A stretch of 64,000 bases of DNA, taken from an uncultured Allomuricauda sp. Lineage in GTDB: Bacteria; Bacteroidota; Bacteroidia; Flavobacteriales; Flavobacteriaceae. A program made the translations under genes and the position numbers. The notes beneath the pieces were generated by a model. That model worked only from the letters and a program-made list of their open reading frames with translations. It did no database searches and was not told where the DNA came from. This document shows positions 226-19,058 of the stretch, one piece after another. Within the stretch, counting starts at the first letter, position 1. Every line of letters begins with the position of its first letter. The stretch spans positions 1,426,001 to 1,490,000 of the forward strand of contig NZ_CANLYK010000001.1 in assembly GCF_947495325.1 (NCBI RefSeq), in the 5' to 3' direction.

Positions 226-365
226 ACTGTCGCTAACAACGGCTATAATTCATTACGTCGGAATTTCCTATCGGAAATTCCCTGCATTTTTGCTATCTTT
301 CGTTCAACGTCGGAATGACACTGCGTGCCATTCCGTAACGAAACTATAGCCCAACCGTTGTGCTT
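226..365 (+). repeat. attC-like inter-cassette element E0
   Basis: Imperfect palindrome. The left arm ends GCTAAC (232-237) and would close a cassette starting outside the window. The inner box GGCTATA (241-247) pairs with TATAGCC (345-351). A nested hairpin GGAATTTCC/GGAAATTCC sits near the left side. The right arm ACC-GTTGTGCTT (357-365) opens the first complete cassette and is complementary to AAGCACAAC at 1936-1944. Confidence 0.75.
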
Positions 366-385
366 CATTAAAAAAAAAACCGAAT

Positions 386-1927
386 ATGATAACAGAATTT
401 ATCGGATAGGGATTAAACGAAAACCCAAATCAAAGTACCGGTAATTATATTCGGACAACTCTTAAGGATATACAATTTTCAAAAATTACTTTTTTTACGG
501 CATTTTTAAGAAAAAGTGGCTTAGATGAAATCAAAAAAGAATTAGTTAAAAATGGTAGAAACATTACTTTTTTTGTAGGTATAGATGAACAGATTACTTC
601 GAAAGAATCGTTAGAAGAATTACTAAACTTAGGTGTCGAAGCTTATATATACAACTCTAAAAGTTTCATCTTCCATCCGAAATTTTACCTTTTCGAGGGG
701 AAAATAAAATCGAGAATAATAATCGGCTCGTCAAATTTAACAAAAGCAGGATTGTTTTATAATGTAGAAAGTTCAGTCTTAATGGACTTCAGTAGCGAAG
801 ATAAAAGCGGACAAAAAATACTAAATCAATTAAAAAATTATTTTTCACCTCTCTTTGATTTCTCAAGTGATAGTATAGATAAAGTAACCAAAGAATATAT
901 TGATTTCTTATTTGAAAACGGTCGTATTTCAAGTGAAGATTTCACAGCTAAGGGAAATGAATTCAATTCAACTCACGATAAATCTAAAAACAACAAGCTT
1001 CCAGAAATTCCAGAATTAGAAGATGTAGATATTTCTGAAAACTCAAATTCTACCAATTACACTTACGAGCTCAAAATCACTGATGAATATCTTGAAAAAT
1101 GGGATGTGATGTTCGAAAGGATGGTAAAATTTAAAGAAAAATATAACAAAACAACAGTTCCTGTAACTTTTGAAGATAGGACGTTATATGGTTGGTACAG
1201 AAAACAAAAAGATATTTATAATCATCCAACATTAAAAATGCCAGATGAGCATTTTGAAAAATTAAATTCAATCCAATTTCATTTTGAAGATGGTCACAAA
1301 GAAAGAGAGCGAATTATTGAACTACAATGGTTAAAAATTCTTAATCAAGCAATAAAAGCAAATGAAGAGATAAAAGTCAATCATAGATATTTATTTAATG
1401 GAGAAAAATTAGGTACATTTTTAGTCGGTTTAAAAGCTTCTAATAAAATTGGAAAGAAATTATCTCTACGTAAAGAAGTAGAAAATACTGGTTTCAATTT
1501 TAAAGAAACAAGTAGAAAACCAAAAGACGTTGCTAGAAGATATATTGATGAATTATTAAATGACGAGAATCCAACTAAATCTGCATATCAAACTAGATTT
1601 AATTCTCATATGAAAAAGAAAAAGGACATCCTAGGAGAAAAATTAGTAATAGAGTTAAATGAGGCTTGGGAATTACAATTTAATGAAAAAAGGTCTTGGG
1701 AAGTTACTAAAAGGCTAATAGATAGAACAAAAGAATGGAAAGAGTTTAGATATAATAAAAACATAAATCCAACAGGAAAATGGGCAAAAGGTCAAAAAAT
1801 TATGGGAGATAAATTATATCATTGGGTAAGAAAAAGAAGGCTAAATAAAAACACTTTGGACTTAATTATCGAACACTTCAATGAAAGTGAAAAATTGGAA
1901 TTACGACAAGAAGGATTCCCGATATAA
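386..1927 (+). pseudogene. PLD-type nuclease with helicase-associated domain, nonsense codon 8
   Basis: Cassette 1. Reading from ATG 386, the frame is open to the stop at 1925-1927 except for one in-frame TAG at 407-409 (codon 8). Downstream of it the frame encodes a phospholipase-D-like nuclease half with HPKFYLF near codon 97 and GSSNLTKAGL near codon 114, the HxK...GSxN pattern of the HKD family. A basic region resembling the helicase-associated (HA) domain follows at about residues 230-295, with WDVMFER and VPVTFED...LYGWYRKQ. Families of this kind normally start with a FIGQGL-like segment, so TAG most simply derives from CAG (Gln). The only ATG/GTG/TTG start after the stop is TTG 752, which would lose the nuclease motifs. 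It is therefore either a pseudogene or read through. PLD/HA proteins are often DNA-targeting or restriction-like; the target here is unknown. Confidence 0.75.
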
Positions 1928-1935
1928 AATAACGA

Positions 1936-2135
1936 AAGCACAACAATGTATATAAAAAATAGGGCAAAAAGTGTCAAACCAAAGGCTTGTGATTATTTAC
2001 AAAGTCCGCCATATTTTTAATTTGTATTTTAAGAAAACAAAAAGATAAAAATAAAATGAAAAATATGGCTAAGTGCAAAACCGAAAGTAAGTGCTTATCA
2101 ACTGCCCTACTTTTCATATACTAACCGTTACCTGC
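1936..2135 (+). repeat. attC-like inter-cassette element E1
   Basis: The left arm AAGCACAAC (1936-1944) is complementary to the start of cassette 1. The inner stem GTATAT (1948-1953) pairs with ATATAC (2116-2121), and AGGGCA pairs with TGCCCT. The long middle carries a subfamily-A core (AAAGTCCGCC and related text) shared with E2, E4, E8, E9 and E15-E17. The right arm GTTACCTGC (2127-2135) opens cassette 2. Confidence 0.85.
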
Positions 2136-2166
2136 AATTAAAACCAACATCCTGAAAACAAAATAA

Positions 2167-2946
2167 ATGGGATTATTTGATAAAATATTTGGAAAAAGTA
2201 ATACGATAAGAGTTCAATTCATTGATTCGTCAAATGGAAACGTTATTGGAGTTTCAGAAATGCCACCAGAACAACTTCCTGAGACATTTGAAATTCAAAC
2301 AACAATGCATTTAAATGATGAGGATTGGTCAATTGAAGAAGCAATTCCTGCACACTCAAAAGAATTCCTTCAATCAAGGAACTTAACTTTAAAAATGAAT
2401 AAAGTTGAGAAAATGAATCCAAATGATATTTGGTATACAACGCCGACTATTTCTAATGAGTTCCCTCAAACCAAACCGAAAACAAAGGAATCTGAACTGG
2501 ACATTAATATTCACGAAGATGATTATAGACAGAAGGAATTTTTAACCATTAGTTCTCTTCCTCAAATAAAAGAAGAATTTAAGGCTGTCAAAGAAATTTG
2601 GACTAATCACAGTAAAAAAAGTGAAGAATACACCTTGTTCAAAAATTGTCACGTTAGAAAAACTATTGGCTTACCTAATTTATCGATTGATTTAAATGAA
2701 ATGCAAACTCTTTTGAACTGTAATTCAGTTGGGCAAGTAATAATTAATGGTGAGGTGCTTGTAAATGGATTCAGTTTAAAGACAGACGATACAACATACT
2801 TCGGAACTCTTGATAACCAAAAAGTAGTTGAGTTTTGTATTTCAGAATGGAACAACAATTCCAAAAACGAAATTTTAAAGATTAATAAAGAATTCAATCT
2901 ACAATTTGTAAATTGGTTTAACTGCGACTTAATAGGAAATGATTAA
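2167..2946 (+). CDS. Hypothetical protein in kptA cassette
   Basis: Cassette 2, first gene (259 aa). I do not recognise the family. The protein starts MGLFDKIFGK, a start often seen in small cytoplasmic proteins. It has no signal peptide or membrane segment and is rich in Asn, Lys and Glu. It overlaps the downstream kptA by 8 bases (ATGATTAA), which implies translational coupling, and both lie between one pair of cassette-specific arms, so they probably move and act together. A role connected with RNA 2'-phosphate handling or NAD+ is only an inference from that pairing. Confidence 0.75.
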   Translation: MGLFDKIFGKSNTIRVQFIDSSNGNVIGVSEMPPEQLPETFEIQTTMHLNDEDWSIEEAIPAHSKEFLQSRNLTLKMNKVEKMNPNDIWYTTPTISNEFPQTKPKTKESELDINIHEDDYRQKEFLTISSLPQIKEEFKAVKEIWTNHSKKSEEYTLFKNCHVRKTIGLPNLSIDLNEMQTLLNCNSVGQVIINGEVLVNGFSLKTDDTTYFGTLDNQKVVEFCISEWNNNSKNEILKINKEFNLQFVNWFNCDLIGND

Positions 2947-3493
2947 CGAAAAAAAACAAACACATATAAGCAAGTTTTTAAGTTTGGTACTAAGACATAA
3001 ACCTGAAACAATTGGAATTCAACTTGACCTAAATGGCTGGATTGACGTTAGTGAATTGATTGAAAAATCAAATAAATACGGAATTCAATTTGACAGAGAA
3101 ACATTAAATCATATAGTTGCAACTAATTCCAAAAAGCGATTTGCTTTTAATGACAAATTGGATAAGATAAGAGCTAGTCAAGGACATTCAATAGAAATCG
3201 AATTAGGTTATACGAATCGAAAACCACCTGAAACACTTTTTCACGGAACAAGCGAAAAATCGGTTCAATCAATTTTAGAAAATGGACTTGAAAGAAAGAA
3301 CAGGCAACACGTTCATTTAAGTAGCGACATTGATACTGCAATCAAGGTAGGACAACGTCATGGAAAGCCTTTTATATTTTTAGTTCTCGCAGAGCAAATG
3401 CATAAAGACAATTTTGAATTCTATATTTCAGACAATGGAGTTTGGTTGACTAATAATGTACCGATAAAATATTTAAAAAAGAGAGACGAATAA
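2939..3493 (+). CDS. kptA: RNA 2'-phosphotransferase KptA/Tpt1
   Basis: The 184-aa length and motif order match the Tpt1/KptA family. R19-H20-K21-P22 lies in the N-terminal winged-helix part. It is followed by a GWIDV segment, the conserved IRASQGHS loop near residue 80, LFHGT near 101, HVHLS near 125, GQRHGKP, and NGVWLT near the C-terminus. Known members transfer an internal RNA 2'-phosphate to NAD+, giving ADP-ribose 1'',2''-cyclic phosphate. In fungi this finishes tRNA splicing; the role in bacteria is unsettled. This copy sits inside a mobile-looking cassette and is coupled to the upstream unknown gene. The stop lies 11 bases before the closing arm GCAGGTAAC. All key motifs are present, so it should be active. 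Confidence 0.93.
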   Translation: MINEKKQTHISKFLSLVLRHKPETIGIQLDLNGWIDVSELIEKSNKYGIQFDRETLNHIVATNSKKRFAFNDKLDKIRASQGHSIEIELGYTNRKPPETLFHGTSEKSVQSILENGLERKNRQHVHLSSDIDTAIKVGQRHGKPFIFLVLAEQMHKDNFEFYISDNGVWLTNNVPIKYLKKRDE

Positions 3494-3503
3494 AGAAATA
3501 ACA

Positions 3504-3704
3504 GCAGGTAACAATGTATAAAAAACATAGGGCGTTTGTGCTTAACTCAAAGGTCTGTGTATATTTATAAAGTCCGCTAAATATAAAATTTGGCGTTTAT
3601 AAAAGAAAAGATAAAAGCAAAATATTTATATTTAGCTAAGTAATAAACCGAAACGAAAGTGCTTATCACCTGCCCTACGATTTCTTATACTGAACGTTGG
3701 GCAT
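3504..3704 (+). repeat. attC-like inter-cassette element E2
   Basis: The left arm GCAGGTAAC (3504-3512) is an exact complement of GTTACCTGC at 2127-2135. It is followed by AATGTATA, a stem pairing with TTATAC near 3685-3690, and a subfamily-A core. The right arm GTTGGGCAT (3696-3704) opens cassette 3. Confidence 0.85.
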
Positions 3705-3716
3705 AATTTAAGCGAA

Positions 3717-4547
3717 ATGGAAAAAAAATTGATTGAATGGTTTAAAAAAACAGGTTATCCTTTTGAATTATGGACTGAATCCATACTTTCAAAATATGAC
3801 TTTAATTCAGTCAATTCTTCGTTATACAAAGACCAAGAAAATGAAATTTTTCGTGAAATCGATTTAGTGTCAACTCGTAGTTGGGAAAGTGAAGATGGAC
3901 TAACTGTTTTTACCATCAAATTAATTATTGAATGTAAAAAGTCGGAGAAACCATTTGTTTTATTATGCAATAAAGAGCAAAAGGAATGTGAAATTCAACT
4001 AGGAGAATATTATGGAGTTGATGACCCTATTTCAAGAATGTTATTTAATAACAATTCTAAATCAATTGAATTACCAAAAAAAAGTAGTTATGGATTTAAA
4101 CTAACGCAAGGATTCGTAAAGGGTGACGAAACTTGTCATAAGGCTATTAACACATTAGTTAAATCATTAAATGAACACTTAAATAACGACAAAGAATTTC
4201 TCGAATATTATATTGAAAGTAATCAACACTTAATAACAATTCCGTTATTACTAATTGACTCACCCTTCTTTGAGTTAAAATTAGACAATGAAAATGAACT
4301 AAAAATAGAAAGAATAAATAGTGGAATTGTATCAACAATAACGCATTTAAGCAGATTCTATCCAGAAAATTTTCTTGTACCAATAATCACAAAAGAGAGT
4401 TTTGAAAACTTTTTAAAAACATTAGAAATAATTGGCAAAAGGAATTTAGACCACTTAATTGAAAATCCATTGTGTAATCTAAAAAATTACGAAAAAACAA
4501 AAATAGTACTAGTTGATAAAGAAAAAACTATGCCCAACAATGTATAA
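3717..4547 (+). CDS. PD-(D/E)XK nuclease-like protein
   Basis: Cassette 3 (276 aa). The N-terminal part has EIDLVSTRSW near residue 47 and LIIECKKS near 70. This acidic residue followed by E-x-K on a beta strand is the core of the PD-(D/E)XK nuclease fold seen in restriction and repair enzymes. The C-terminal half has no motif I recognise. No signal peptide or membrane helix is seen. The frame runs into the closing palindrome: the last residues (MPNNV) are encoded by the arm ATGCCCAAC and the stop TAA lies in its GTATAA box. The element thus supplies the C-terminus and stop. The nuclease assignment rests on a short motif and is moderately secure; DNA damage or defence functions are possible. 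Confidence 0.75.
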   Translation: MEKKLIEWFKKTGYPFELWTESILSKYDFNSVNSSLYKDQENEIFREIDLVSTRSWESEDGLTVFTIKLIIECKKSEKPFVLLCNKEQKECEIQLGEYYGVDDPISRMLFNNNSKSIELPKKSSYGFKLTQGFVKGDETCHKAINTLVKSLNEHLNNDKEFLEYYIESNQHLITIPLLLIDSPFFELKLDNENELKIERINSGIVSTITHLSRFYPENFLVPIITKESFENFLKTLEIIGKRNLDHLIENPLCNLKNYEKTKIVLVDKEKTMPNNV

Positions 4548-4693
4548 CCGCAATTACGGCGGATTCGACTACCCTTCGGCTGCGCTCAGGGCTGGCTTAA
4601 ACGAATCCACTCGGAATTGCTAACGTCCGTGCCAAACCGAAAATTAAAGCATATAAACCCGTAACTGACGGTTATACGAGACCGTTGTAGCAC
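4530..4693 (+). repeat. attC-like inter-cassette element E3
   Basis: The left arm ATGCCCAAC (4530-4538) is an exact complement of the cassette 3 start. The inner stem GTATAACCG (4542-4550) pairs exactly with CGGTTATAC (4669-4677). Subfamily B: the middle contains CCCTTCGG/GCTGCGCTCAGGG hairpin-forming text. It is nearly identical to E6. The right arm GTTGTAGCAC (4684-4693) opens cassette 4. Confidence 0.85.
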
Positions 4694-4743
4694 ATTTACC
4701 AAGACCAACTAAATGATTGGATTAGTCGGAAATAGTCGGTTAG

Positions 4744-4878
4744 GATAAAATTGGAAAAAAAGACAATTCGAATCGAGAATATAAATTTAAGATTGCGGAA
4801 AATGGACAAGAATTTTTAATCACTTCTGCTGGTTCTGATGGAAAATTTAAAACGGAAGATGACATTAAATCGAAATAA
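4744..4878 (+). pseudogene. C-terminal remnant of a small protein
   Basis: An open frame with no normal start codon ends at TAA 4876-4878. It encodes a tail with ITSAGSDGKFKTEDD, a segment typical of the C-termini of many Bacteroidota secreted or lipoprotein-like small proteins. A short out-of-frame start (ATG 4713) suggests that the 5' part has decayed by frameshift. It overlaps the start of the next membrane protein gene. A relic is the best reading, but a non-standard start cannot be excluded. Confidence 0.35.
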
Positions 4879-5119
4879 AAGAGGTTTAAAAATTATTGGA
4901 CTTTATATAATTAGCTTAGTCTGCATATTCTTCTATTTCTTAATGGAGCACTATAACGTCATCTTTGTACTCTTTGAAAAATGGGACCTGAATCCCGATG
5001 GCAAGTTTACTACACTTGTTTTTACTGGATTACTTCAATATGGATTATTAGTAGTTGGAATATGTATTTTTTCAATGCTGAGTTTTATTCTAGTCAGAGA
5101 GAAAATTAAAAGCGAATAA
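4838..5119 (+). CDS. Small two-helix membrane protein
   Basis: Cassette 4 (93 aa from ATG 4838; ATG 4859 giving 86 aa is equally plausible). The sequence is basic at the N-terminus and has two hydrophobic helices, at about residues 20-40 (IIGLYIISLVCIFFYFLM) and 63-85 (LVFTGLLQYGLLVVGICIF), with a charged tail. It is an inner-membrane protein of unknown function. The stop lies 8 bases before the closing arm GTGCTACAAC. Confidence 0.6.
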   Translation: MENLKRKMTLNRNKRGLKIIGLYIISLVCIFFYFLMEHYNVIFVLFEKWDLNPDGKFTTLVFTGLLQYGLLVVGICIFSMLSFILVREKIKSE

Positions 5120-5127
5120 ATAAAAAC

Positions 5128-5328
5128 GTGCTACAACAAAGCCTAAACGTAATGCGGACTTTAGGGCAAAAACGAAAGGTCTGTGTATTTTTATGAAGTC
5201 GCTAAATCTTTGGGATTTTGCTTTGGTCAAAAAAAGAAAAAACAAAACCAAAAGCTTTTGCTTAGCACGTAGCTGGAAATCCGTCGGATTTCCGCGCCGC
5301 ACTAATCATAGCCGAACCGTTGTGCAAC
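5128..5328 (+). repeat. attC-like inter-cassette element E4
   Basis: The left arm GTGCTACAAC (5128-5137) is an exact complement of the cassette 4 start. It has a subfamily-A core with the internal inverted repeat GCTAAATC...GATTTTGC. A second hairpin GGAAATCC/GGATTTCC lies near 5274-5292. The right arm GTTGTGCAAC (5319-5328) opens cassette 5. Confidence 0.85.
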
Positions 5329-5376
5329 ATTTGAATTTCATTTAAAAGCTTCCTTAAAACCAATAAACGTTTTCCG

Positions 5377-6246
5377 ATGAGTGGTATTCAAGACATGAAT
5401 AATCGTATGAAGCAAAATCGGGATTTGAGACCTTCAAAACGTGCAAAATTCAAAGGAAATAATCGAGAGAGTCTATACACCAAATCAAACCCAGAGGACA
5501 AACCAAAATTCAAGGAGTTTTCTGAGTTTCAAGTGAAAAAGACGATTAAAAGGTTTAGGGAGGAATCCAAGTCTAAAAAGCGTTTGGAATTAGGGATTTT
5601 GTCCGCTTTTTTAGGGGTAATAGTCGCCTTATTGATTTACTCCGCAATGTCCAAAGAGGACACGCCACAGACAGCCAAAGTGAGTAAATCTAGTAATAGT
5701 TACAAATGGATTCCGCCTACAATATGGAATGGAAAATTAAGCGAACCGCTAAGAGTTCCGTATTCGGACTATTTCTATATTCCAATGGTAGGGAACTTAG
5801 ATTATGTTGATTTAGAAAGAACCTACCAAATACATCGCTCTAACATGATTGTCGAGTATACCAGTAATATTCTGTTTTTGGACAAGAACTGCAACGTCAT
5901 CAATAAACTACTGCCCGAAAATGGGTCTATAAGGTATATGAATGTTGTCCCAAGAAATGAAGAGTCTAAACCAAGAAAAATCATTTATAGGTTAACTCAA
6001 GATGAGCCCAATGCGTTTGGCAAAATATATAATCTTGAAAAACACTTTTTTTATATCTCAGACTTGGATGGAAAAAACTTGATAAAAATCACTGACCGCG
6101 AAATAATAAGTTTTCAATGGGACCAAAAGCGGGAGGAAATTCGATTCTACTTTTTTTATAATAAAAGAATGAACGATAGCCTTCATGGTGTGTTTAACAT
6201 TGAATCAAATAAATTTAGCCTAGCTAGTCGGCAAGAAAAAAACTAA
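5377..6246 (+). CDS. Single-pass membrane protein, function unknown
   Basis: Cassette 5 (289 aa). A very basic, probably cytoplasmic N-terminal region of about 70 residues is followed by one transmembrane helix at about 73-92 (LGILSAFLGVIVALLIY). The remaining ~200 residues would be extracytoplasmic. They are rich in aromatic residues and contain repeated YF/YI strands, suggestive of a beta-rich sensor or binding domain. I do not recognise the family. The closing arm GTTGTACAAC matches the opening arm with one mismatch. Confidence 0.7.
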   Translation: MSGIQDMNNRMKQNRDLRPSKRAKFKGNNRESLYTKSNPEDKPKFKEFSEFQVKKTIKRFREESKSKKRLELGILSAFLGVIVALLIYSAMSKEDTPQTAKVSKSSNSYKWIPPTIWNGKLSEPLRVPYSDYFYIPMVGNLDYVDLERTYQIHRSNMIVEYTSNILFLDKNCNVINKLLPENGSIRYMNVVPRNEESKPRKIIYRLTQDEPNAFGKIYNLEKHFFYISDLDGKNLIKITDREIISFQWDQKREEIRFYFFYNKRMNDSLHGVFNIESNKFSLASRQEKN

Positions 6247-6250
6247 AAAC

Positions 6251-6387
6251 GTTGTACAACACAGTGTATAATTAATTGCGAGTGGAATTTCTACTTGGAA
6301 ATTCCTGCAATCAATTATCTTTAAAGTCAGGCGGACATTTTCCGTTGGAAAAGTCCGCAACTAATCATACACAAACCGTTGGCAGTA
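6251..6387 (+). repeat. attC-like inter-cassette element E5
   Basis: The left arm GTTGTACAAC (6251-6260) pairs with the cassette 5 start (one mismatch). Subfamily C: GTGTATAATTAATTGCG pairs with CGCAACTAATCATACAC across the whole outer stem, with nested GGAATTTC/GGAAATTCC hairpins. The right arm GTTGGCAGTA (6378-6387) opens cassette 6. Confidence 0.85.
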
Positions 6388-6403
6388 ATAAAATGAATAT
6401 ACC

Positions 6404-6985
6404 ATGAAATATTTTTTGACAACCTTGTTAGTAACAATTTCGCTAACACTTAATGCTCAAAATATCGAAATCAGTTTAAAAAATAGAAATGAAAAGGAAC
6501 TGAAGGCAGAGGCACAGTTGCAACGAATAATTGAAACTTACAAAAGTGACATCAATACATGGATTTTTACAACTAAGGTTGAGATTAACGAAAATACCAT
6601 TCCATTCAGTCATCCGGTTCTAACACTTAATTGTAACTACTTGAATGATGATCTTAAACAACTATCCAATTTTCTTCACGAGCAATTTCACTGGTTGGAA
6701 GAGGCTAAAAAAGAACTTCGCGAAAAAGCTATCAGTGAATTCAAGGAAATTTACCCTGATGTTCCTGTAAAAGGAAAAGAAGGTGCAAGAAATGAATACA
6801 GCACGTATTTGCATCTTATTGTTTGCGACCTTGAGTTTCAAGCAATGACAGAGGTTGTTGGAGAACAAATGGCAAGACATATACTCTCTGAATGGAAGCA
6901 TTATCGATGGATTTACAATAAAGTACTAAATGATAAACGAGTAAGAGAGGTAAATACTAAATATGGTTTTAACATTTTAAACTAA
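6404..6985 (+). CDS. Secreted HExxH protein, putative metallopeptidase-like
   Basis: Cassette 6 (193 aa). A clear signal peptide (MKYFLTTLLVTISLTLNAQ) precedes a periplasmic or secreted domain. HEQFH at residues 92-96, preceded by hydrophobic residues (LSNFL), fits a zinc-binding helix of zincin metallopeptidases. A possible third ligand among the Glu residues near 144-152 is not certain. The rest is helical and matches no family I know. The gene is alone between its arms GTTGGCAGTA and TACTGCCAAC. Confidence 0.7.
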   Translation: MKYFLTTLLVTISLTLNAQNIEISLKNRNEKELKAEAQLQRIIETYKSDINTWIFTTKVEINENTIPFSHPVLTLNCNYLNDDLKQLSNFLHEQFHWLEEAKKELREKAISEFKEIYPDVPVKGKEGARNEYSTYLHLIVCDLEFQAMTEVVGEQMARHILSEWKHYRWIYNKVLNDKRVREVNTKYGFNILN

Positions 6986-6995
6986 TTATTATGAC

Positions 6996-7158
6996 TACTG
7001 CCAACAATGTATAACCACAATTACAGTGCATTCGACTACCCTTCGGCTGCGCTCAGGGCTGGCTTAAACGAATCCACTCGGAATTGCTAACGTCAGTGCC
7101 AAACCGAAAATTAACGCATATTAACCCGTAACTGACGGTTATACGAGGCCATTGTATG
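6996..7158 (+). repeat. attC-like inter-cassette element E6
   Basis: The left arm TACTGCCAAC (6996-7005) is an exact complement of the cassette 6 start. Subfamily B, nearly identical to E3 over its whole length. The right end carries ATTGTATG (7151-7158) where GTT is expected, a single G-to-A change. The partner arm CATACAAC at 7655-7662 still implies an original GTT. Confidence 0.85.
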
Positions 7159-7180
7159 TCATTAAAAAAACGGACAAGAA

Positions 7181-7651
7181 ATGATTAAAGGACTATTTGA
7201 AACCCATTTATTTGTTGAAAATCTTGAACGCTCAATAGATTTTTACACGAATGTTTTAAGACTTGAACAATATCTTTTTGAAAAGGAAAGAAGAGCTGCT
7301 TTATTTTGGATTGGAGAAAAACCGAGACAAGCAATGTTAGGACTTTGGGAAAAACCAAAAGAAGAAATTGATTTAAGACATTTTGCGTTTGAATGTGACT
7401 GGGATTGGGTTTTAAACGAATCTATTGAATTTCTGAAATCCCATAAAATAGGATTTTGGAATTTCTTAACTGATGATTCCGAAAGACCTATGGTATTTGT
7501 AAATATTCCAGCTATCGCAATTTACTTTTCGGATCCTGACGGTCATTATTTGGAATTTATCGGAAAATTGCCAGGGAAATATCGACCTGAAAAAGGAAGT
7601 TTAGTAGTAACCTATGAAGAATGGTTGGAAATAGAAAAGAATGATAAATAA
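7181..7651 (+). CDS. VOC/glyoxalase family protein
   Basis: Cassette 7 (156 aa). It shows the vicinal-oxygen-chelate pattern: THLFV at residues 8-12 (His9), a DFYTNVLRLE helix, LRHFAF with His67, and FSDPDGHYLEFIG with Glu125 at the end of the second beta-alpha-beta-beta-beta unit. His9, His67 and Glu125 are the likely metal ligands. The family includes glyoxalases, ring-cleaving dioxygenases and bleomycin/fosfomycin resistance proteins. The substrate cannot be told from sequence. It is cytoplasmic, and the only gene in its cassette. Confidence 0.87.
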   Translation: MIKGLFETHLFVENLERSIDFYTNVLRLEQYLFEKERRAALFWIGEKPRQAMLGLWEKPKEEIDLRHFAFECDWDWVLNESIEFLKSHKIGFWNFLTDDSERPMVFVNIPAIAIYFSDPDGHYLEFIGKLPGKYRPEKGSLVVTYEEWLEIEKNDK

Positions 7652-7654
7652 CGC

Positions 7655-7789
7655 CATACAACAACATGTATAATTCATTGCTAGTACTCGCTTACTTACG
7701 AAAATCCTTGCGGATTTTCTATCTGTGATTTATTTGCTAATTTTCTCGCTTAACCACGCAACTAACCATACACAATAACGTTACCCAAC
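7655..7789 (+). repeat. attC-like inter-cassette element E7
   Basis: The left arm CATACAAC (7655-7662) pairs with the cassette 7 start. Subfamily C with the GTATAATTCATTGC / GCAACTAACCATAC outer stem and an inner GAAAATCC/GGATTTTC hairpin. The right arm GTTACCCAAC (7780-7789) opens cassette 8. Confidence 0.85.
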
Positions 7790-8358: not shown

Positions 8359-8559
8359 GTTGGGTAACACAACCTAAACGTAATGCGGAGTTTAGAGCAA
8401 AAATGAAAGATCTGTGTATATTTATGAAGTCGCTAAATCTTATGGATTTAGCTTTGGACGAGAAAAATAAAACTAAACAATAAGCTTTAGCTTCGTGCTC
8501 AGACGGAAACGAAAAAGTTCCTTGCTTTCGCAATACGCTTAGCTCAGCCGTTGGCAACA
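8359..8559 (+). repeat. attC-like inter-cassette element E8
   Basis: The left arm GTTGGGTAAC (8359-8368) is an exact complement of the cassette 8 start. Subfamily A, clearly related to E4 (CCTAAACGTAATGCGGA, TATGAAGTCGCTAAATCTT). The right arm GTTGGCAACA (8550-8559) opens the toxin-antitoxin cassette. Confidence 0.85.
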
Positions 8560-8621
8560 ATATCAGAAAAATTTGGGTTTGGTTCGATTTTGGTGTAAAT
8601 TAGCATCAAAATACATTTCTT

Positions 8622-9141: not shown

Positions 9142-9158
9142 ACTGCACGCAAAAATAC

Positions 9159-9360: not shown

Positions 9361-9369
9361 ATTTAAAAA

Positions 9370-10128: not shown

Positions 10129-10133
10129 AAAAC

Positions 10134-10273: not shown

Positions 10274-10291
10274 ATTCAACCTCAATTCTAA

Positions 10292-10707: not shown

Positions 10708-10711
10708 AAAC

Positions 10712-10823
10712 TGCATACAACACTGGCTATAATTCATAGCTGCTTTTGGGTTAAACCAAAGTTCAGTATTTTTAATCGGCTGGATTTCTAACGGTGGAAA
10801 TCATAGCCTAAACGTTGGCGGTA
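10712..10823 (+). repeat. attC-like inter-cassette element E11
   Basis: The left arm TGCATACAAC (10712-10721) is an exact complement of the cassette 11 start. Subfamily D like E0: GGCTATAATTCATAGC pairs with the ATCATAGCC end. At 112 bp it is among the shorter complete elements. The right arm GTTGGCGGTA (10814-10823) opens cassette 12. Confidence 0.85.
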
Positions 10824-10899
10824 ATAAAAGTACTCCTGCTATCTCCGTGTGAACAAACTAGAATAACGACAAGATATAAAAACATAGAATCAGAAATGT

Positions 10900-11553: not shown

Positions 11554-11561
11554 GTAAATAC

Positions 11562-11699
11562 TACCGCCAACAATGTATAAAAATAATGCTTAATTTAATG
11601 CTCAATCAAAGGTTAGTGCGTATTTGGTCACTCCGATTTTCCTACGGAAAATCCTCGGACTAAAAACCGCACTATTCTTATACGTAACCGTTGGCTTTA
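11562..11699 (+). repeat. attC-like inter-cassette element E12
   Basis: The left arm TACCGCCAAC (11562-11571) is an exact complement of the cassette 12 start. GTATAA pairs with TTATAC before the right arm. The centre has the hairpin GGTCACTCCGATTTTCC-TAC-GGAAAATCCTCGGA. The right arm GTTGGCTTTA (11690-11699) opens cassette 13. Confidence 0.85.
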
Positions 11700-11706
11700 A
11701 TTTGAA

Positions 11707-12417
11707 ATGACATTGAAAACAAACTCGGAGAATCATTTTTTTATAGCAACTGCTATATGGTATTTGCTTACTGTTTTCTGGGGTTTTGCGCCTTCCTTTT
11801 ACCTTTCAAACATCTTTGATAACCCTGAACCTCTTCCAACCCACTTGATTATTCATGGAATTGTTTTTACGATTTGGACACTCCTATATGCCGTGCAGAT
11901 TTTCTTGATTAAATCCAAAAATTATAAAGCACATCAGGTGCTAGGAATTTTCGGTTTGTTTATCATGATTTTAATGGTGCCTACCGGAATTTTTCCATCC
12001 ATTTATAAGGTATATGCCGGTACTACTACTATAGATGCTGCTGGCCACAATGTTTCTAGGCTATCTTTTGCATATATACTATTTGCTTTCGCGTTTGTCT
12101 ACAGAAAGAAAGCCTTTTATCATAAACGTTTTATGTTGGGCTGTATGGTAATGTTGATGAGTGCTGCAATATTTCGAATATCATTTGACTTTAACATGCA
12201 GTCTAGTCAATTCTTCAATAAAGGTCTCCAAGTTTTACCTGCCGTTATGCTTTTTTTATTTGATTTGGTCAAGTACAAAAAGTCAGTATTTATTGACCTT
12301 ATTTCTGTAGTTGCGGTACTATCGATTTTTTTCTTAGCGGATTATTTCTGGTTATCAACTTCTGGAGAAATCTTTATGAATTTTTTGATTGATATATTCG
12401 TGACTCCCTTCGTATAA
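11707..12417 (+). CDS. Polytopic membrane protein, function unknown
   Basis: Cassette 13 (236 aa). About seven hydrophobic segments are visible, the first at 14-35 and the last at about 205-228. Histidines in or next to membrane segments (THLIIHGIVFTIW, HQVLGIFG, YHKRF) recall heme-binding or DUF2306-like integral membrane proteins, but no family can be assigned with confidence. It is the only gene in its cassette. The closing arm TAAAGCTAAC differs by one base from a perfect complement of the opening arm. Confidence 0.75.
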   Translation: MTLKTNSENHFFIATAIWYLLTVFWGFAPSFYLSNIFDNPEPLPTHLIIHGIVFTIWTLLYAVQIFLIKSKNYKAHQVLGIFGLFIMILMVPTGIFPSIYKVYAGTTTIDAAGHNVSRLSFAYILFAFAFVYRKKAFYHKRFMLGCMVMLMSAAIFRISFDFNMQSSQFFNKGLQVLPAVMLFLFDLVKYKKSVFIDLISVVAVLSIFFLADYFWLSTSGEIFMNFLIDIFVTPFV

Positions 12418-12433
12418 ATGGAAAATGAAAAAC

Positions 12434-12473
12434 TAAAGCTAACAATTACTTATAGCTGAGACCGTTGGCAAAC
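12434..12473 (+). repeat. Minimal 40-bp inter-cassette element E13
   Basis: Only the two outer arms remain: TAAAGCTAAC (12434-12443) closing cassette 13 and ACC-GTTGGCAAAC (12464-12473) opening cassette 14, with 20 bases between them. The L-type inner stem and the central hairpins are absent. Both arms still match their own cassettes, so the element shows how little separates two apparently complete cassettes. Confidence 0.8.
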
Positions 12474-12487
12474 ATTAAAAATATTGA

Positions 12488-12724
12488 ATGAAGAAATATA
12501 TGGTCGTTGAAAAATTCAAACCTGATTGTTTTGAAAAGAATAACGAATTATGGGATAGAAAAGGTAGAATGCTTCCAGAAGGACTTTACTACTTAAATTC
12601 TTGGGTAAATAAAGAAAAAAGTATTTGCTTCCAGCTTATGGAAACCAATAAACCAGAACTCTTTGACGAATGGACCAATAAGTGGAAAGAATACACAGAT
12701 TTTGAAGTATTTTCAATTGATTAA
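12488..12724 (+). CDS. DUF3303 family protein
   Basis: Cassette 14 (78 aa). MVVEKFKPDC at the start, GRMLPEGLYYLNSW in the middle and CFQLMETNKPELFDEWTNKW at the end are the conserved blocks of DUF3303, a small dimeric ferredoxin-like alpha/beta protein of unknown role. It is full length, cytoplasmic, and alone in the cassette. Confidence 0.87.
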   Translation: MKKYMVVEKFKPDCFEKNNELWDRKGRMLPEGLYYLNSWVNKEKSICFQLMETNKPELFDEWTNKWKEYTDFEVFSID

Positions 12725-12757
12725 TTAGAACCCTTTTAGACTTGGGTGAAAATAACG

Positions 12758-12900
12758 ATTTGCCAACAAGGTGTATACGTAATAGCGGTTTGAGGTGATA
12801 AAACGGAAGTATAAACATAAAATAAAGGTAAGTGCGAAACCGAAAGGTTTGTGAGCAGAAATTCGATACTACTCATAGCCGAAACCGTTTAGCCACAAGC
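12758..12900 (+). repeat. attC-like inter-cassette element E14
   Basis: The left arm ATTTGCCAAC (12758-12767) pairs with the cassette 14 start with one mismatch, followed by GTGTATACG. The central part is shortened and keeps a CGAAAGG-TTTGTG fragment of subfamily A. The right arm GTTTAGCCACAAGC (12887-12900) pairs with GCCTGTGTCTAAC (13395-13407) with mismatches and one gap, marking the start of visible decay. Confidence 0.75.
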
Positions 12901-13394: not shown

Positions 13395-13513
13395 GCCTGT
13401 GTCTAACAACACGAATAGCAAATAGGGCGCAAAGTACTAAATTTAAGGGCTTGGTTTGTTTACGAAGTCCGCCAAATCATTGATTTGGTTTTAAAACGAA
13501 AAGATAAAACAAA
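13395..13513 (+). repeat. Truncated inter-cassette element E15, fused to next start codon
   Basis: The left arm GCCTGTGTCTAAC (13395-13407) and a subfamily-A core (AAGTCCGCCAAATC, then AAAAGATAAAACAAAATGAAAA) are present, but the right arm with ACC-GTT is missing. The core runs directly into the start codon of the next gene, so a deletion has joined element interior and cassette 16. Confidence 0.7.
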
Positions 13514-14749
13514 ATGAAAAATCACAAAATACTTTTATCAATCACTTTTCTATTTTCAGTTTTAGCAACTTATGGCCAAAATTTACCAAGTTTATTAACC
13601 GAGAAAAACATCAATTCGACTTTTTCAATTCTTGCCTATGACAAAAATTCCCAAGAATGGGGAATTGGAGTTGCAACAAACAATATCTATGTTGGAAACT
13701 CAACAATTTACATTGAACCCGAAATTGGTGCATTTTCCGTAATAGCGGAAACAGAACCTAAATATGGGATTAATGGACTTGAAAAACTTAAAACGGGTAA
13801 ATCCATTGAACAGGCAATCATAGAAGTAAGAAAAAATGATGATGAAGCAAATTATCGTCAAGTTTCAGGAATTGACGCAAAAGGCAATGTTTTTGCGTTT
13901 ACAGGCAAATCCTTGAAATACTGGAATGGGAAAGCTGGACAAATTTTAGGCGAAAACTACGTGGTAATGGGTAACCAACTTGCGGATGAAGTACTTTCTG
14001 AAATGTCGAAATCTTTCGAGAATTCAGAGGGAACATTGGCTGAGCGACTTTTGAAAAGTTTGGTTGCTGGGCAAAACGCAGGCGGACAAATATCTGGTAA
14101 GCAATCTGCAGCTGTTGTTGTAAAAGGGTCTAATAACGAATGGTACAATCAAATTGACCTTAGAGTTGACAACTCAAAAGAACCCATAAAAGAATTACAG
14201 ACATTAATGGATTATCATTATGGTAGAATCCGTTTGAACCAAGCACTTTTTGCACACCGAGAAGGGAATTCAGAAAGAGCGAAACAAAAATTGACTGAGG
14301 CGGAATCCATGTTGAACGGCTGGACTGGAATGTACTCAAAAATCGCTGGTGCCAATATCGCTATGGGAAATGAAACACAAGCAATCAATTGGATAAAAAA
14401 AGGTCTTGCCGAAAATCCTAATTGGTCAGTAAATATTCCTGCGTTTTATTTTCTTCGTAATAATCCCGAAATGAAATCAATAATCCAATCCAATTCTTTT
14501 AGTGTAACTGATTGGGAAAGTGCTATGGGAATGCTAAGTAATCTAGGGCAAGAATTAGAAGTGATTAAAGAAATAAAAGGACTTTTTAAAAAGAAAATTG
14601 AATCTTCCTATTTGAACTTCTTACTTGGCAGAAGTTATTTTTACGAAAAAGAACAAGAAAAAGCTATTGCATATCTGGAAAAAGCATTAAAAATGGACAG
14701 CGAAAATATAGAGGCTGAAAATTTATTGAATAAAATAAGAGCAAAGTAA
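13514..14749 (+). CDS. Secreted DUF1028 protein with C-terminal TPR-like repeats
   Basis: Cassette 16, first gene (411 aa). A signal peptide (residues 1-21, ending TYGQ) is followed by a DUF1028 domain at about 34-225, with FSILAYDKNSQEWGIGVATN and AGGQISGKQSAAVVV. This Ntn-hydrolase-like fold has unproven activity. From about 230 on, helices with alternating A/Y/L spacing and a final YEKEQEKAIAYLEKALKMD unit indicate TPR repeats. It abuts the next gene without a gap (TAA at 14747-14749, ATG at 14750), so the pair is one transcription unit. Confidence 0.87.
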   Translation: MKNHKILLSITFLFSVLATYGQNLPSLLTEKNINSTFSILAYDKNSQEWGIGVATNNIYVGNSTIYIEPEIGAFSVIAETEPKYGINGLEKLKTGKSIEQAIIEVRKNDDEANYRQVSGIDAKGNVFAFTGKSLKYWNGKAGQILGENYVVMGNQLADEVLSEMSKSFENSEGTLAERLLKSLVAGQNAGGQISGKQSAAVVVKGSNNEWYNQIDLRVDNSKEPIKELQTLMDYHYGRIRLNQALFAHREGNSERAKQKLTEAESMLNGWTGMYSKIAGANIAMGNETQAINWIKKGLAENPNWSVNIPAFYFLRNNPEMKSIIQSNSFSVTDWESAMGMLSNLGQELEVIKEIKGLFKKKIESSYLNFLLGRSYFYEKEQEKAIAYLEKALKMDSENIEAENLLNKIRAK

Positions 14750-15721
14750 ATGAGGAAAAACAGAAAATACATTTTTTTTATTGGAATAGCGGCATTACTC
14801 TTCGTTGGATACTTAATTGCCGACAATATGCTTTTCAACGGAATAAAACCATACTCTGTACATGAAAGTGGCTTTCAAGCAAACTACTTTGTGAAAGAAA
14901 ATACAAAGAGTAAAGCAGCAGTAATTCTAATTGGTGGAGGACAATGGGGAGATTACTGGGCACAACAATTTGCTAATAAAGGAATGGTCGGTTTATCATT
15001 ACCTTATATAGGAGAAGAAGGTTTACCAAGATTACCAGAAGAAATTGAATTGGAATACTTTGAAAACGCCATTAATTGGCTTAGAAAACAGTCTGAGGTC
15101 GACCCAAATAAAATAATCGTTATGGGGGCTTCAAGAAATGCGGAATTAGCATTAATTATCGCTTCCACATTCCCTGAATCTGTTAGCGGAGTTGTTGCCT
15201 ATGCACCAAGCTCTGTTTCTTGGTCAAATACAGTTTTGCCATATAATTCCAACGAATTGAAATCGAGCTGGAAATATAAGGGAGTTGATATTCCATACGT
15301 GCCAATGAATAAAATCATAGGAAACGAATCGGATAAAATTAAAATGGTGGACTATTGGAAAAATGGTTTAGCAAAAACAAATTTCATACTACAAGCAGCT
15401 ATCAAAGTAGAAAAGATTAATGGCCCTATTATACTTTTTTCTGGAAACGATGATAAGGTTTGGCCATCATCAATAATGGCAGATATGATAGAACGGAGAT
15501 TAGGACATAATAGCTTTGAACATTCCTTTCAGAATATAAAATATGACAACGCTGGACACTTAATTTCAAATAATCCCGATAATAATTCGAGTTATAGAAC
15601 TGGAATAATTAATATCGATGGAAAAGATTATAAATATGAATTTGGCGGAAATAATATTGGCGACTTTAAAGCAAAACAAGATGCCAAACTAAAATTGATG
15701 GAATTCATAGAAAAGATATAA
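14750..15721 (+). CDS. BAAT-type alpha/beta hydrolase
   Basis: Cassette 16, second gene (323 aa). An N-terminal transmembrane or signal-anchor helix (8-26) is followed by an alpha/beta-hydrolase of the bile-acid-CoA:amino-acid N-acyltransferase/acyl-CoA thioesterase C-terminal type. VILIGGGQWG forms the oxyanion region, GASRNAELAL carries the probable nucleophile Ser128, SGNDDKVWP the acidic residue and DNAGH the His. BAAT-type enzymes hydrolyse acyl-thioesters or transfer acyl groups. A membrane-anchored extracytoplasmic version suggests a lipid or ester substrate, which is inferred. Confidence 0.87.
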   Translation: MRKNRKYIFFIGIAALLFVGYLIADNMLFNGIKPYSVHESGFQANYFVKENTKSKAAVILIGGGQWGDYWAQQFANKGMVGLSLPYIGEEGLPRLPEEIELEYFENAINWLRKQSEVDPNKIIVMGASRNAELALIIASTFPESVSGVVAYAPSSVSWSNTVLPYNSNELKSSWKYKGVDIPYVPMNKIIGNESDKIKMVDYWKNGLAKTNFILQAAIKVEKINGPIILFSGNDDKVWPSSIMADMIERRLGHNSFEHSFQNIKYDNAGHLISNNPDNNSSYRTGIINIDGKDYKYEFGGNNIGDFKAKQDAKLKLMEFIEKI

Positions 15722-15728
15722 ACCTGAA

Positions 15729-15900
15729 TAAAACACAGCTTGTAAGTACTAAATTTAAGGGCTTTTACTTATTTACGAAGACCGCCAAATCTTTTGATTA
15801 GGTATTAAAAAAGAAAAAATAAAGGATTCGGCTTGTGTATCATCCCAAAATTATCGCTTATTTTCAGTGCTACTTTTCATATACGTGACCGCTAGCAAAA
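15729..15900 (+). repeat. Degenerate inter-cassette element E16
   Basis: Related to E15: both contain AAGTACTAAATTTAAGGGCTT and an ACGAAG-CCGCCAAATC core. The right end reads ATACGTGACC-GCTAGC where GTTAGC is expected, a changed core triplet. No complementary arm for cassette 16 can be tested because its left arm is lost. Confidence 0.65.
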
Positions 15901-17995: not shown

Positions 17996-18006
17996 AAAAT
18001 TAAAAA

Positions 18007-18561
18007 ATGAACAAAACTGAAATATCAACTGATAGACTAAACTTAAGATTGATTGAATTATCGGATTTAGATTCAATCCACAATTTACATTCCTTACCAG
18101 AAACGGATGAGTTTAATGCGTTGGGGATTCCAAAAAATATTGAAGAAACCAAATCCATAATTGAACCTTGGATTGTAGAGAATCAACTGCCCAAAATAAA
18201 AAATTACACTTTTGCAATTGATATCAAATCGAATGGAAAATTTATTGGCCTATTTGGATTAAAACTCGGAAATAAGAAATATAAAGGGGCTGAAATTTGG
18301 TATAAAATACATTCTGATCATTGGAAAAAAGGGTATGCCACAGAATCTTTAAATGCAGTAATAAAATTTGGATTTGAAGCTCTTAAATTACACCGGATAG
18401 AAGCAGGATGCGCTGTGAACAATATCGGCTCAATTAAAGTTCTAGAAAAAGCGGGAATGATAAGAGAGGGACGAGGAAGGCTAATATTACCTTTAAAATC
18501 AGGTTGGTCCGACAACTTTAAGTATTCAATACTTGAAACCGACGAAAGAAAAAGTAACTAA
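18007..18561 (+). CDS. GNAT acetyltransferase, RimJ/RimL type
   Basis: 184 aa. The opening TDRLNLRLIELSDLD, the YKGAEIWYKIHSDHWKKGYATE block (KKGYATE as the acetyl-CoA loop) and HRIEAGCAVNNIGSIKVLEKAGM are standard for the RimJ/RimL branch, which acetylates protein N-termini or small molecules. It lies in the decayed part of the array, in the same orientation as the other cassettes. Substrate unknown. Confidence 0.9.
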   Translation: MNKTEISTDRLNLRLIELSDLDSIHNLHSLPETDEFNALGIPKNIEETKSIIEPWIVENQLPKIKNYTFAIDIKSNGKFIGLFGLKLGNKKYKGAEIWYKIHSDHWKKGYATESLNAVIKFGFEALKLHRIEAGCAVNNIGSIKVLEKAGMIREGRGRLILPLKSGWSDNFKYSILETDERKSN

Positions 18562-18564
18562 GCA

Positions 18565-18597
18565 TAACAATAGCTGTATGTAATTGCTAAATTAATA
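18565..18597 (+). repeat. Relic of inter-cassette element E19
   Basis: ACAATAGCTGTATGTAATTGCTAAATT resembles the left half (AAC-AAT...GTAATTGC) of the palindromes and is similar to E20. The right arm is absent. Confidence 0.45.
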
Positions 18598-18600
18598 TTG

Positions 18601-19008
18601 ATGGAAGTATTTTTTTACGGCCTATTTATGGATGAAGATCTATTGATTGGAAATGGAATAAATCCATTAAATCCTAGAAAAGGACATTTAAATAACTACA
18701 CTTTAAAAATAGGGAATCGAGCTTCCCTAATACAAACTAAAGGAGAAAAAGCCTATGGTATTGTAATGACGGTAAACGAGGAAGAAATTACCAAACTATA
18801 TTCTGAAAAGAGTGTTTCTGATTACATTCCCGAGAAAGTAAACGTTATCTCAGAAACTAATGAACATATAACAGCAACATGCTATAACCTTCCTCTTGAG
18901 CTACTTACGGGGACAAATGAATTGTATACAAAATCTCTCTATAAATTAGCTGAAAAACTGAACTTTCCCAAAGAATATTTAAGAACCATAAGTAAAAATC
19001 ATATGTAA
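18601..19008 (+). CDS. Gamma-glutamylcyclotransferase-like protein
   Basis: 136 aa from ATG 18601 (an in-frame TTG lies at 18598). EVFFYGLFMDEDLL at the start corresponds to the FxYGtL loop of the gamma-glutamylcyclotransferase/AIG2 fold, and YGIVMTVNEEEITKLYS to the strand-helix that follows. The usual catalytic Glu is not obvious, so activity is uncertain. The stop codon overlaps the next palindrome arm ATGTAAC. Confidence 0.75.
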   Translation: MEVFFYGLFMDEDLLIGNGINPLNPRKGHLNNYTLKIGNRASLIQTKGEKAYGIVMTVNEEEITKLYSEKSVSDYIPEKVNVISETNEHITATCYNLPLELLTGTNELYTKSLYKLAEKLNFPKEYLRTISKNHM

Positions 19009-19058
19009 CAGTGATTATACGTAATTGCTAAACTACTCATAAACTATGACCGTTACAT
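19003..19058 (+). repeat. Last recognisable inter-cassette element E20
   Basis: ATGTAAC (19003-19009) and GTTACAT (19052-19058) are exact complements, with ATTATACG following the left arm and ACTATGACC before the right. At 56 bp it is a short but complete palindrome and the last element of this kind I see. It marks the distal border of the array. Confidence 0.65.

What the first reader, a model, noticed from the sequence alone, without database searches (positions are those of the whole stretch)
226..19058. A long attC-like gene-cassette array in a Bacteroidota chromosome
About 20 small genes, all on one strand, are separated by palindromic elements. In 15 consecutive cassettes the opening arm (after ACC-GTT) is complementary to the closing arm (ending AAC) of the same cassette, not of its neighbours. 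Examples: GTTACCTGC/GCAGGTAAC, GTTGGGCAT/ATGCCCAAC, GTTGTAGCAC/GTGCTACAAC, GTTGGCAGTA/TACTGCCAAC, GTTACCCAAC/GTTGGGTAAC, GTTGGCAACA/TGTTGCCAAC, GTTGTATGCA/TGCATACAAC, GTTGGCGGTA/TACCGCCAAC. Cassette-specific pairing follows if each unit was once a circle joined at GTT/AAC, as with integron cassettes. Inside each palindrome a second pair (GTATAA/TTATAC type) mimics the L boxes, separated from the outer arms by 3-6 unpaired bases. The cores are not classical GTTRRRY, and integrases are not commonly reported from this phylum. It may therefore be a divergent integron or another single-strand hairpin recombination system.
Basis: partly seen in the sequence, partly recalled or inferred. Interest (0 to 1): 0.95.

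Follow-up and report, generated by a model that had tools for sequence, protein, structure and literature searches.

The report
Integrons run by a different enzyme
In many Bacteroidota, small genes sit in rows as exchangeable cassettes with matching hairpin ends, and the enzyme that likely moves them is not the known integron integrase and lacks a part thought essential to it.

Summary
In 16 of 17 consecutive cassettes the opening arm (GTT...) pairs with the closing arm (...AAC) of the same cassette, not of its neighbours. The array starts before the window: at -879 a first cassette joins an attI-like site, 150 bp from the start of a divergent tyrosine-recombinase gene. By the tests run, that recombinase is not IntI. 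It scores below the integron-integrase cut-off, lacks the ~40-residue IntI insert and falls in a separate clade. A covariance model of the hairpins hit 43 of 80 related integrase loci, every hit on the array side and strand, and 173 of 199 sampled genera of the family. Folding favours the bottom strand in 242 of 262 elements. Exact mobility is visible: a congener carries one 865-bp cassette twice, 100% identical, at attI and at a second chromosomal site that two other congeners have empty, cut at G|TT. Its main array differs from ours while the flanks are about 95% identical. Best reading: an integron system run by a non-IntI recombinase lineage. Recombination was not assayed.

The parts
1..237 (+). 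Cassette 2 body, 242 bp, no ORF of 60 aa inside; opens 4 bases before the window with GTTAGCGACA, closes TGTCGCTAAC. To its left, outside the window, lie cassette 1 (-879 to -187), the attI-like site (GTT at L007:10121) and the integrase gene (L007:8903-9970, minus strand).
238..356 (+). attC hairpin of cassette 2 (119 bp)
   Evidence: 79.7 bits
357..1944 (+). Cassette 3 body, ORF with helicase-associated domain (PF03457)
   Evidence: arms 9/10
1945..2126 (+). attC hairpin of cassette 3
2127..3512 (+). Cassette 4 body, 259-aa ORF and RNA 2'-phosphotransferase (PF01885)
   Evidence: 9/10
3513..3695 (+). attC hairpin of cassette 4
3696..4538 (+). Cassette 5 body, 276-aa ORF
   Evidence: 10/10
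4539..4683 (+). attC hairpin of cassette 5
4684..5137 (+). Cassette 6 body, 93-aa ORF
   Evidence: 10/10
5138..5318 (+). attC hairpin of cassette 6 (weak, 27.1 bits)
5319..6260 (+). Cassette 7 body, 289-aa ORF
   Evidence: 9/10
6261..6377 (+). attC hairpin of cassette 7
6378..7005 (+). Cassette 8 body, 193-aa ORF
   Evidence: 10/10
7006..7150 (+). attC hairpin of cassette 8
7151..7662 (+). Cassette 9 body, glyoxalase-family ORF (PF00903); opens with ATT instead of GTT
   Evidence: 8/10
7663..7779 (+). attC hairpin of cassette 9
   Evidence: 106.9 bits
7780..8368 (+). Cassette 10 body, cupin ORF (PF07883)
   Evidence: 10/10
8369..8549 (+). attC position of cassette 10, inferred from the flanking arms; no model hit
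   Evidence: not hit
8550..9168 (+). Cassette 11 body, ParD-like and ParE-like pair (PF03693, PF05016)
   Evidence: 10/10
9169..9350 (+). attC hairpin of cassette 11
9351..10143 (+). Cassette 12 body, DUF4440 ORF
   Evidence: 9/10
10144..10263 (+). attC hairpin of cassette 12
10264..10721 (+). Cassette 13 body, 112-aa ORF
   Evidence: 10/10
10722..10813 (+). attC hairpin of cassette 13
10814..11571 (+). Cassette 14 body, DUF218 ORF
   Evidence: 10/10
11572..11689 (+). attC hairpin of cassette 14
11690..12443 (+). Cassette 15 body, 236-aa ORF
   Evidence: 9/10
12444..12463 (+). Very short junction between cassettes 15 and 16 (remnant attC, inferred)
   Evidence: sequence; no hit
12464..12767 (+). 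Cassette 16 body, DUF3303 ORF
   Evidence: 9/10
12768..12886 (+). attC hairpin of cassette 16
   Evidence: 50.8 bits
12887..13409 (+). Cassette 17, GNAT acetyltransferase; arms degenerate (2/10 in register); body shared with congener G507 (89%)
13510..15782 (+). 2.3-kb stretch (DUF1028 and BAAT_C-like ORFs) absent from the same locus in congener G507
18017..19059 (+). 1.0-kb stretch absent from the same locus in congener G507

Best explanation
This is an integron-type array: gene cassettes, each closed by its own hairpin site, standing beside an insertion site and a gene for a tyrosine recombinase that is predicted to cut and join them at G|TT. Shown from sequence: the cassette anatomy, the fixed insertion site, the hairpins with covarying stems, the bias towards folding of the bottom strand, and exact-edged cassette gains between close relatives. 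Inferred: that the adjacent recombinase does the work; that it acts on a folded bottom strand; that the free cassette is a circle in which the two arms meet as a 10-bp stem, which is what would keep the arms matched; and that its N-terminal domain of about 65 residues, or another part, does what the IntI insert does in known integrons. The recombinase belongs to a Bacteroidota lineage outside IntI in the tree made here.
For: Own-arm pairing in 16 of 17 window cassettes and 167 of 207 candidate cassettes elsewhere, junction control 15 of 262. First, cruder test: 75 own-arm cassette pairs on the array side of 80 relatives' integrases, 1 on the other side, 0 in shuffles. attI: of 36 arrays of the window's integrase clade, 29 have a GTT 100-200 bp from the integrase start whose arm matches the first hairpin's closing arm at 8/10 or better (28 at 9/10), with a conserved flank ending TATATWTAYGT; in 5 of the 7 misses the covariance model gave a nearer first hairpin and the match is 9-10/10. 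Model hits: 150 rows (3 window elements listed twice, training elements included), every one on array strand and array side. Strand: bottom strand folds more stably in 242 of 262 hairpins, against 55 of 206 control segments; 301 of 383 non-Watson-Crick positions near the L box are A.C on the top strand, hence G.T on the bottom. Unit: in 17 pairs of homologous cassettes the following hairpin is homologous in 16 (identity 0.91 or more), the preceding one at background level in 15 (10 of the 17 pairs lie within one array). Mobility: congener G507 shares 94.6% over 10.1 kb up to the attI GTT, then other cassettes; its 865-bp first cassette recurs, 865 of 865 bases, at a second site that is empty in G533 and G516 and holds another cassette in our genome, edges G|TT and G|AT. 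One genome holds a 570-bp cassette four times with the same edges. Catalytic residues R213, H302, R305, H328, Y337 are invariant in 34 relatives (roles recalled).
Against: No recombination assay, and no circle was seen. That this enzyme acts rests on position and co-occurrence. In 60 congeners only 2 have the window-type integrase while 58 have hairpins; the search threshold there would hide the second integrase clade, so cassettes may often be relics or served by another enzyme. 21 related loci with more than 400 bp of array side had no model hit, in part because Weeksellaceae hairpins differ, in part unexplained. 40 of 207 candidate cassettes fail the arm test. The covariation count uses rows chosen for a paired L box, so only the inner helix there is an unbiased test (96.4% paired). 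At least one cassette pair shares its body but not its hairpin. At the second site G492 and G525 show the right edge, but their arms or left edge could not be confirmed.
Confidence: 0.85

Rival explanations
1. A classical IntI, now lost or acting from elsewhere in the genome, built the arrays; the neighbouring recombinase is a bystander.
For: IntI above cut-off occurs in 84 of 296 phylum genomes; hairpins of this type also occur in genomes without the window-type integrase.
Against: No IntI match in the window's genome, and none of the 85 matching genomes is of its family or order. The hairpins sit at the integrase's own 5' side at a fixed distance. R boxes fit GTTRRRY in only 16 of 167 cassettes.
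Confidence: 0.06
2. Homologous recombination or gene conversion between similar hairpins moves the genes; no site-specific enzyme is needed.
For: Hairpins in one array are similar (background identity 0.68); one cassette pair differs in its hairpin.
Against: Insertion into a site with no hairpin, exact to the base at G|TT and G|AT; arms that match only within a cassette; a fixed attI.
Confidence: 0.05
3. Dispersed palindromes (REP-like elements or terminators) between ordinary operon genes.
For: Hairpins lie between genes and can be single.
Against: Arms flank the gene, not the hairpin; strand-biased folding; presence-absence with exact edges.
Confidence: 0.02
4. A transposon family with hairpin ends that carries passenger genes.
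For: Exact insertion at a second chromosomal site.
Against: Units in tandem share one hairpin per junction and carry unrelated genes; many lie in series beside one recombinase gene; no transposase domain among the 20 ORFs scanned from the window and cassette 1.
Confidence: 0.02

Closest known systems
Sedentary chromosomal integron with IntI integrase
   Same: Recombinase gene, attI-like site, tandem one-gene cassettes in one orientation, hairpin sites with R and L boxes around G|TT, bottom strand favoured for folding, own-cassette complementarity of the R boxes (last point recalled for IntI systems).
   Different: Integrase lacks the IntI insert (65 residues instead of 107 between two motifs), has an extra N-terminal domain and lies outside the IntI clade. 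The R box keeps only GTTR, with own-cassette pairing over about 10 bases. In the sister clade the integrase points along the array and attI-like sites follow its stop codon.
Integron-like tyrosine-recombinase subgroup of Smyshlyaev et al. 2021 (PMC8138268, passages seen)
   Same: The paper says the CAT insertion is 'not fully conserved' in its integron-like subgroup, so members without it may be relatives of this family.
   Different: The passages seen describe no cassette arrays for such members; whether this family falls in that subgroup was not tested.
Xer recombinases (XerA, XerC, XerD)
   Different: Separate clade from the genome's own XerC and XerD, an added N-terminal domain, linked cassette arrays.
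CALIN (attC clusters without integrase, IntegronFinder term)
   Same: Congener G503 has 12 hairpins at the same chromosomal site with no integrase found in the 15 kb examined.
   Different: The hairpins are of the type described here; IntegronFinder itself was not run.

Membership tests
Integron (IntI type) | IntI integrase above the curated model cut-off (TIGR02249, 265 bits) | tested here: not met
   184.9 bits; 183.5-208.7 in eight relatives of both clades; IntI1 507.5
Integron (IntI type) | IntI-specific additional domain near patch III | tested here: not met
   K..DR to HxLRH spacing 65 (16 of 16 clade A rows), 64-66 (13 clade B rows), 107 in the 15 of 19 IntI rows that could be measured; about 36 residues of 2a3v unmatched between its two aligned stretches
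Integron (IntI type) | Integrase in the IntI clade | tested here: not met
   IntI 100/100, families A+B together 98/91; 18 of 20 fetched IntI plus IntI1, only 4 Xer rows, some long branches
Integron (IntI type) | R box GTTRRRY / RYYYAAC | tested here: not met
   16 of 167 openings fit; GTT in all 167 (selected for GTT), purine next in 165
Integron (any) | Array of cassettes, each one gene plus attC, same orientation | tested here: met
Integron (any) | attI site beside the integrase where cassettes enter | tested here: met
Integron (any) | attC folds as a hairpin, bottom strand preferred | tested here: met
   By computed folding only; not by experiment
Integron (any) | Extrahelical bases that select the strand | tested here: inconclusive
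   Unequal spacers (3 and 5-6 nt) and A.C mismatches that become G.T on the bottom strand; no single bulge was shown
Integron (any) | Cassettes gained and lost with edges at G|TT | tested here: met
   from genome comparison
Integron (any) | Cassette promoter (Pc) at attI | tested here: inconclusive
   TAnnTTTG (recalled Bacteroidota motif) in 11 of 29 leaders on the array strand, 8 of 29 on the other; shuffles mean 5.5, highest 10
Integron (any) | Integrase-dependent recombination | not testable with these tools
   needs an assay
XerA-type recombinase (NF040815) | Score above the equivalog cut-off of 220 | tested here: not met
   202 bits for the window's enzyme; 3 of 6 clade B proteins pass

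The most novel reading that the evidence does not exclude
Bacteroidota have their own integron lineage: a family of tyrosine recombinases outside IntI, without the IntI insert but with an added N-terminal domain, runs a cassette pool shared across Flavobacteriaceae. Its R boxes pair over 10 bases only within a cassette, so the site would be strongest in the free circle and weakest in the array, which would push cassettes towards insertion.
Probability: 0.65. Interest if true: 0.93.

Novelty: new variant of a known kind. Interest (0 to 1): 0.88.

Why it matters
Integrons are known as gene-capture systems of mostly Proteobacteria, with one enzyme family, IntI, whose extra domain is called necessary for recombination (PMC9668308, passage seen). 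A system of the same design with another enzyme would show that capture of single-stranded hairpin cassettes does not need that domain, would open a large unread cassette pool (hairpins in 173 of 199 sampled genera of the family), and would explain why IntegronFinder 2.0 reported hardly any complete integrons in Bacteroidetes (Salinibacter ruber named; PMC9024848, passage seen). It makes directly testable what lets a tyrosine recombinase read a folded strand.

Tried and rejected
Rfam: no hit in the window at gathering scores. A loose chain of arms alone, without hairpins, did not separate the array well from shuffles (63 against 39-56) or from its own reverse complement (61); adding the hairpin geometry did. 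Phage origin: in viral contigs only distant recombinases turned up, best segments 21-34% identity. N-terminal domain: no significant fold match (best E 0.42); Pfam DUF5710 weakly in 16 of 39 members at E up to 1, best 0.00028, and HARP in 1 of 39. Full-model fold search was a second look at Foldseek hits; families not listed there are not excluded. Bacteroidota-type promoter in the leader: inconclusive. Literature: nine searches of open PMC papers gave no description of a non-IntI cassette system in Bacteroidota; subscription papers and preprints are not held, so this is not proof of absence. Of eight papers I saw passages only, of the rest listings.

Samples that were chosen: the 15 clade B loci fetched were picked because hairpin hits lay near an integrase hit, so their arrays are not a prevalence estimate. 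Five arrays duplicated between two fetches were counted once. Two of 20 fetched IntI were dropped from the tree because no motif was found. Of 59 congeners with the left-flank gene, 20 were examined.
Full report
What was checked. The finding claims that in a run of small genes the arm after GTT at each gene's start pairs with the arm before AAC at the same gene's end. On 17 consecutive units, 16 show it at 6 of 7 positions or better beyond GTT; the mean is 6.24 of 7 against 2.26 for other pairings and 1.75 for the pairing across a junction, and 100,000 permutations reach at most 4.35. The inner palindrome has fixed spacing: 3 nt on the 5' side, 5-6 nt on the 3' side.

The recombinase. The window lies at C1:1426001-1490000 of an unnamed 4.1-Mb genome. 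Just to its left lies a 355-aa tyrosine recombinase gene, divergent from the array (L007:8903-9970). From its start, 150 bp away, the first cassette opens with GTTACCATGC and closes with GCATGGTAAC. Relatives at 65-79% identity are common in Flavobacteriaceae, and named loci reach Weeksellaceae, Bacteroidales and Chitinophagales records. In 199 genomes of the family, each a different genus, 10 carry this clade (E 2e-171 or better, one with in-frame stops); the next match is 6e-91.

It is not IntI by the tests run. TIGR02249 gives 184.9 bits against a cut-off of 265, in two pieces. The spacing between the K..DR and HxLRH motifs is 65, as against 107 in the IntI rows measured and 68-69 in two Xer rows. 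In the tree the window's clade (A) and a second clade (B) group together at 98/91, IntI at 100/100. Only four Xer rows were included, so no wider placement is claimed. True IntI is present in the phylum (84 of 296 genomes over cut-off), but none of the 85 matching genomes is of the window's family or order. The enzyme has an N-terminal domain of about 65 residues, predicted as beta-beta-alpha-beta-beta-alpha, with no clear relative.

The hairpin. Forty-nine hairpins from the window and relatives gave a covariance model. Of its 12 base pairs, 10 have changes on both sides and 97.8% of cells pair, far above slid and shuffled controls. The rows were chosen for a paired L box, so the inner helix, 96.4% paired, is the fairer part. 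Over 82 sources the model gave 150 rows, every one on the array strand and on the array side of the integrase; 43 of 80 relatives' loci had at least one (my count of the listing). Sixteen loci without a hit hold under 400 bp on that side; 21 hold more and still lack one. Some of these, as in Weeksellaceae, have another L box (GGTATTGCC type) with matched arms. In whole genomes the model hits 173 of 199 genera of the family, 58 of 60 congeners and 77 of 247 phylum genomes.

Blind arm test. Hairpins found by a sequence profile that stops at AAC and GTT delimit 207 candidate cassettes in 53 arrays. In 167 the arms match at 6 or 7 of 7; across single hairpins the same count is 15 of 262. In 17 pairs of homologous cassettes the following hairpin is shared in 16 and the preceding one is at background in 15. 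Ten of these pairs lie in one array and three join different genomes. So the mobile unit is gene plus the hairpin after it, as in integrons.

Strand. Folded with DNA parameters, the bottom strand is the more stable in 242 of 262 hairpins; in control segments from cassette bodies the bias runs the other way (55 bottom, 147 top, of 206). The cause is mostly A.C on the top strand, that is G.T on the bottom, next to the L box (301 of 383 non-Watson-Crick positions). With own arms joined, as in a free circle, the bottom strand is more stable than in the array in 154 of 167 (-26.7 against -21.7 kcal/mol) (before that script stopped on an error).

attI. In 36 arrays of clade A, 29 show a GTT 100-200 bp from the integrase start whose arm matches the first hairpin at 8/10 or better; its 5' flank is conserved (T -9 and A -8 in 29 of 29, T -7 and G -2 in 28). 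In five of seven misses the profile had skipped the first hairpin, and the covariance hits give 9-10/10. In clade B the integrase points along the array and the first cassette follows its stop codon, for example 40 bp after it in L122.

Movement. (1) Within arrays: L122 holds one 570-bp cassette four times, 94.6-100% identical, each from GTT to the next GTT with different neighbours; L043, L020, L120 and L075 hold near-identical pairs. (2) Between genomes: congener G507 matches our locus at 94.6% over 10.1 kb up to the attI GTT. Beyond it the cassettes differ, apart from hairpins and the degenerate cassette 17, and homology resumes at window 15783 (95.3%). Two stretches, 13510-15782 and 18017-19059, are ours alone. 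(3) At the locus: in 20 congeners examined of 59, the left-flank gene joins sequence like window 26053 after 143-1157 bp in 9, 1.6-4.2 kb in 7 and 6.5-11.5 kb in 4. Hairpins lie in three of the four, 18 in all; the control side has 4. One of these three has a clade-B-like integrase there, the other two none found. (4) At second sites: three single hairpins elsewhere in our genome each close a cassette with 10/10 own arms. One of these cassettes sits beside a 428-aa ORF. G533 and G516 have that site empty (...CCTAATC|GATAAGTGCC); ours reads ...CTTAAAC|GTTAGC...cassette...GACC|GATAAGTGCC; G507 has another cassette there, identical over 865 of 865 bases to the first cassette at its attI; G503 has a third (arms 9/10). 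G492 and G525 show the right edge only or unconfirmed arms; G518 and G514 were not resolved. G507 was not searched for IntI.

Cassette contents in the window include a ParDE-like pair, an RNA 2'-phosphotransferase, a glyoxalase-like protein, a cupin and an acetyltransferase; several ORFs have no Pfam match.

Reading. The anatomy is that of an integron, and the moves are cut where an integron would cut. The enzyme beside it fails three defining tests of IntI. I therefore file it as a system that works like an integron and is a new variant of that kind, not as an IntI integron. That this recombinase does the work, on a folded bottom strand, is inference.

Prior work. Passages seen: PMC9024848 (complete integron in Salinibacter ruber; earlier only In0 in Bacteroidetes), PMC9668308 and PMC2426708 (IntI domain as criterion), PMC8138268 (insert not fully conserved in an integron-like subgroup), PMC8618304, PMC2727003, PMC8352920, PMC10963911. 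Nine searches found no account of this system in the held library; preprints and subscription papers are outside it.

Noticed in passing
L114:11974-15260 and on (Chryseobacterium plasmid NZ_CP041688.1): A related integrase on a plasmid, followed on the same strand by repeated hairpins and by units with arms GTTGGGAAAA/TTTTCCCAAC; the first opening lies about 100 bp after the integrase stop. A mobile version may exist.
   Followed up: partly
L116/L130 and L058/L129: Cassette bodies alike from GTT to AAC (92% and 90%) with unlike hairpins after them; hairpins may be exchanged separately.
   Followed up: partly
L165:4756 and L163:4628: Two different second sites in our genome share the target motif G|ATAAGTGC, as if there were a preferred chromosomal target.
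   Followed up: partly
L199 (congener G503, same chromosomal site): Twelve hairpins and no integrase found in the 15 kb examined, at the site where our genome has the integrase and array.
   Followed up: partly
L068, L070, L075 (Chryseobacterium, Flavobacterium covae): A second hairpin class with L box GGTATTGCC and 2- and 6-nt spacers; some cassettes with matched arms.
   Followed up: partly
L119 (genome G113) and its neighbourhood: Hairpin hits on one strand from 173 to 238 kb beside an integrase at 242 kb, so an array of perhaps 65 kb.
   Followed up: no
window 1-237 (from -4): A 242-bp cassette without an ORF of 60 aa inside it; possibly a promoter cassette.
   Followed up: no
G050:C27:45072-46136: An integrase of the window's clade with two in-frame TAA codons.
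   Followed up: no
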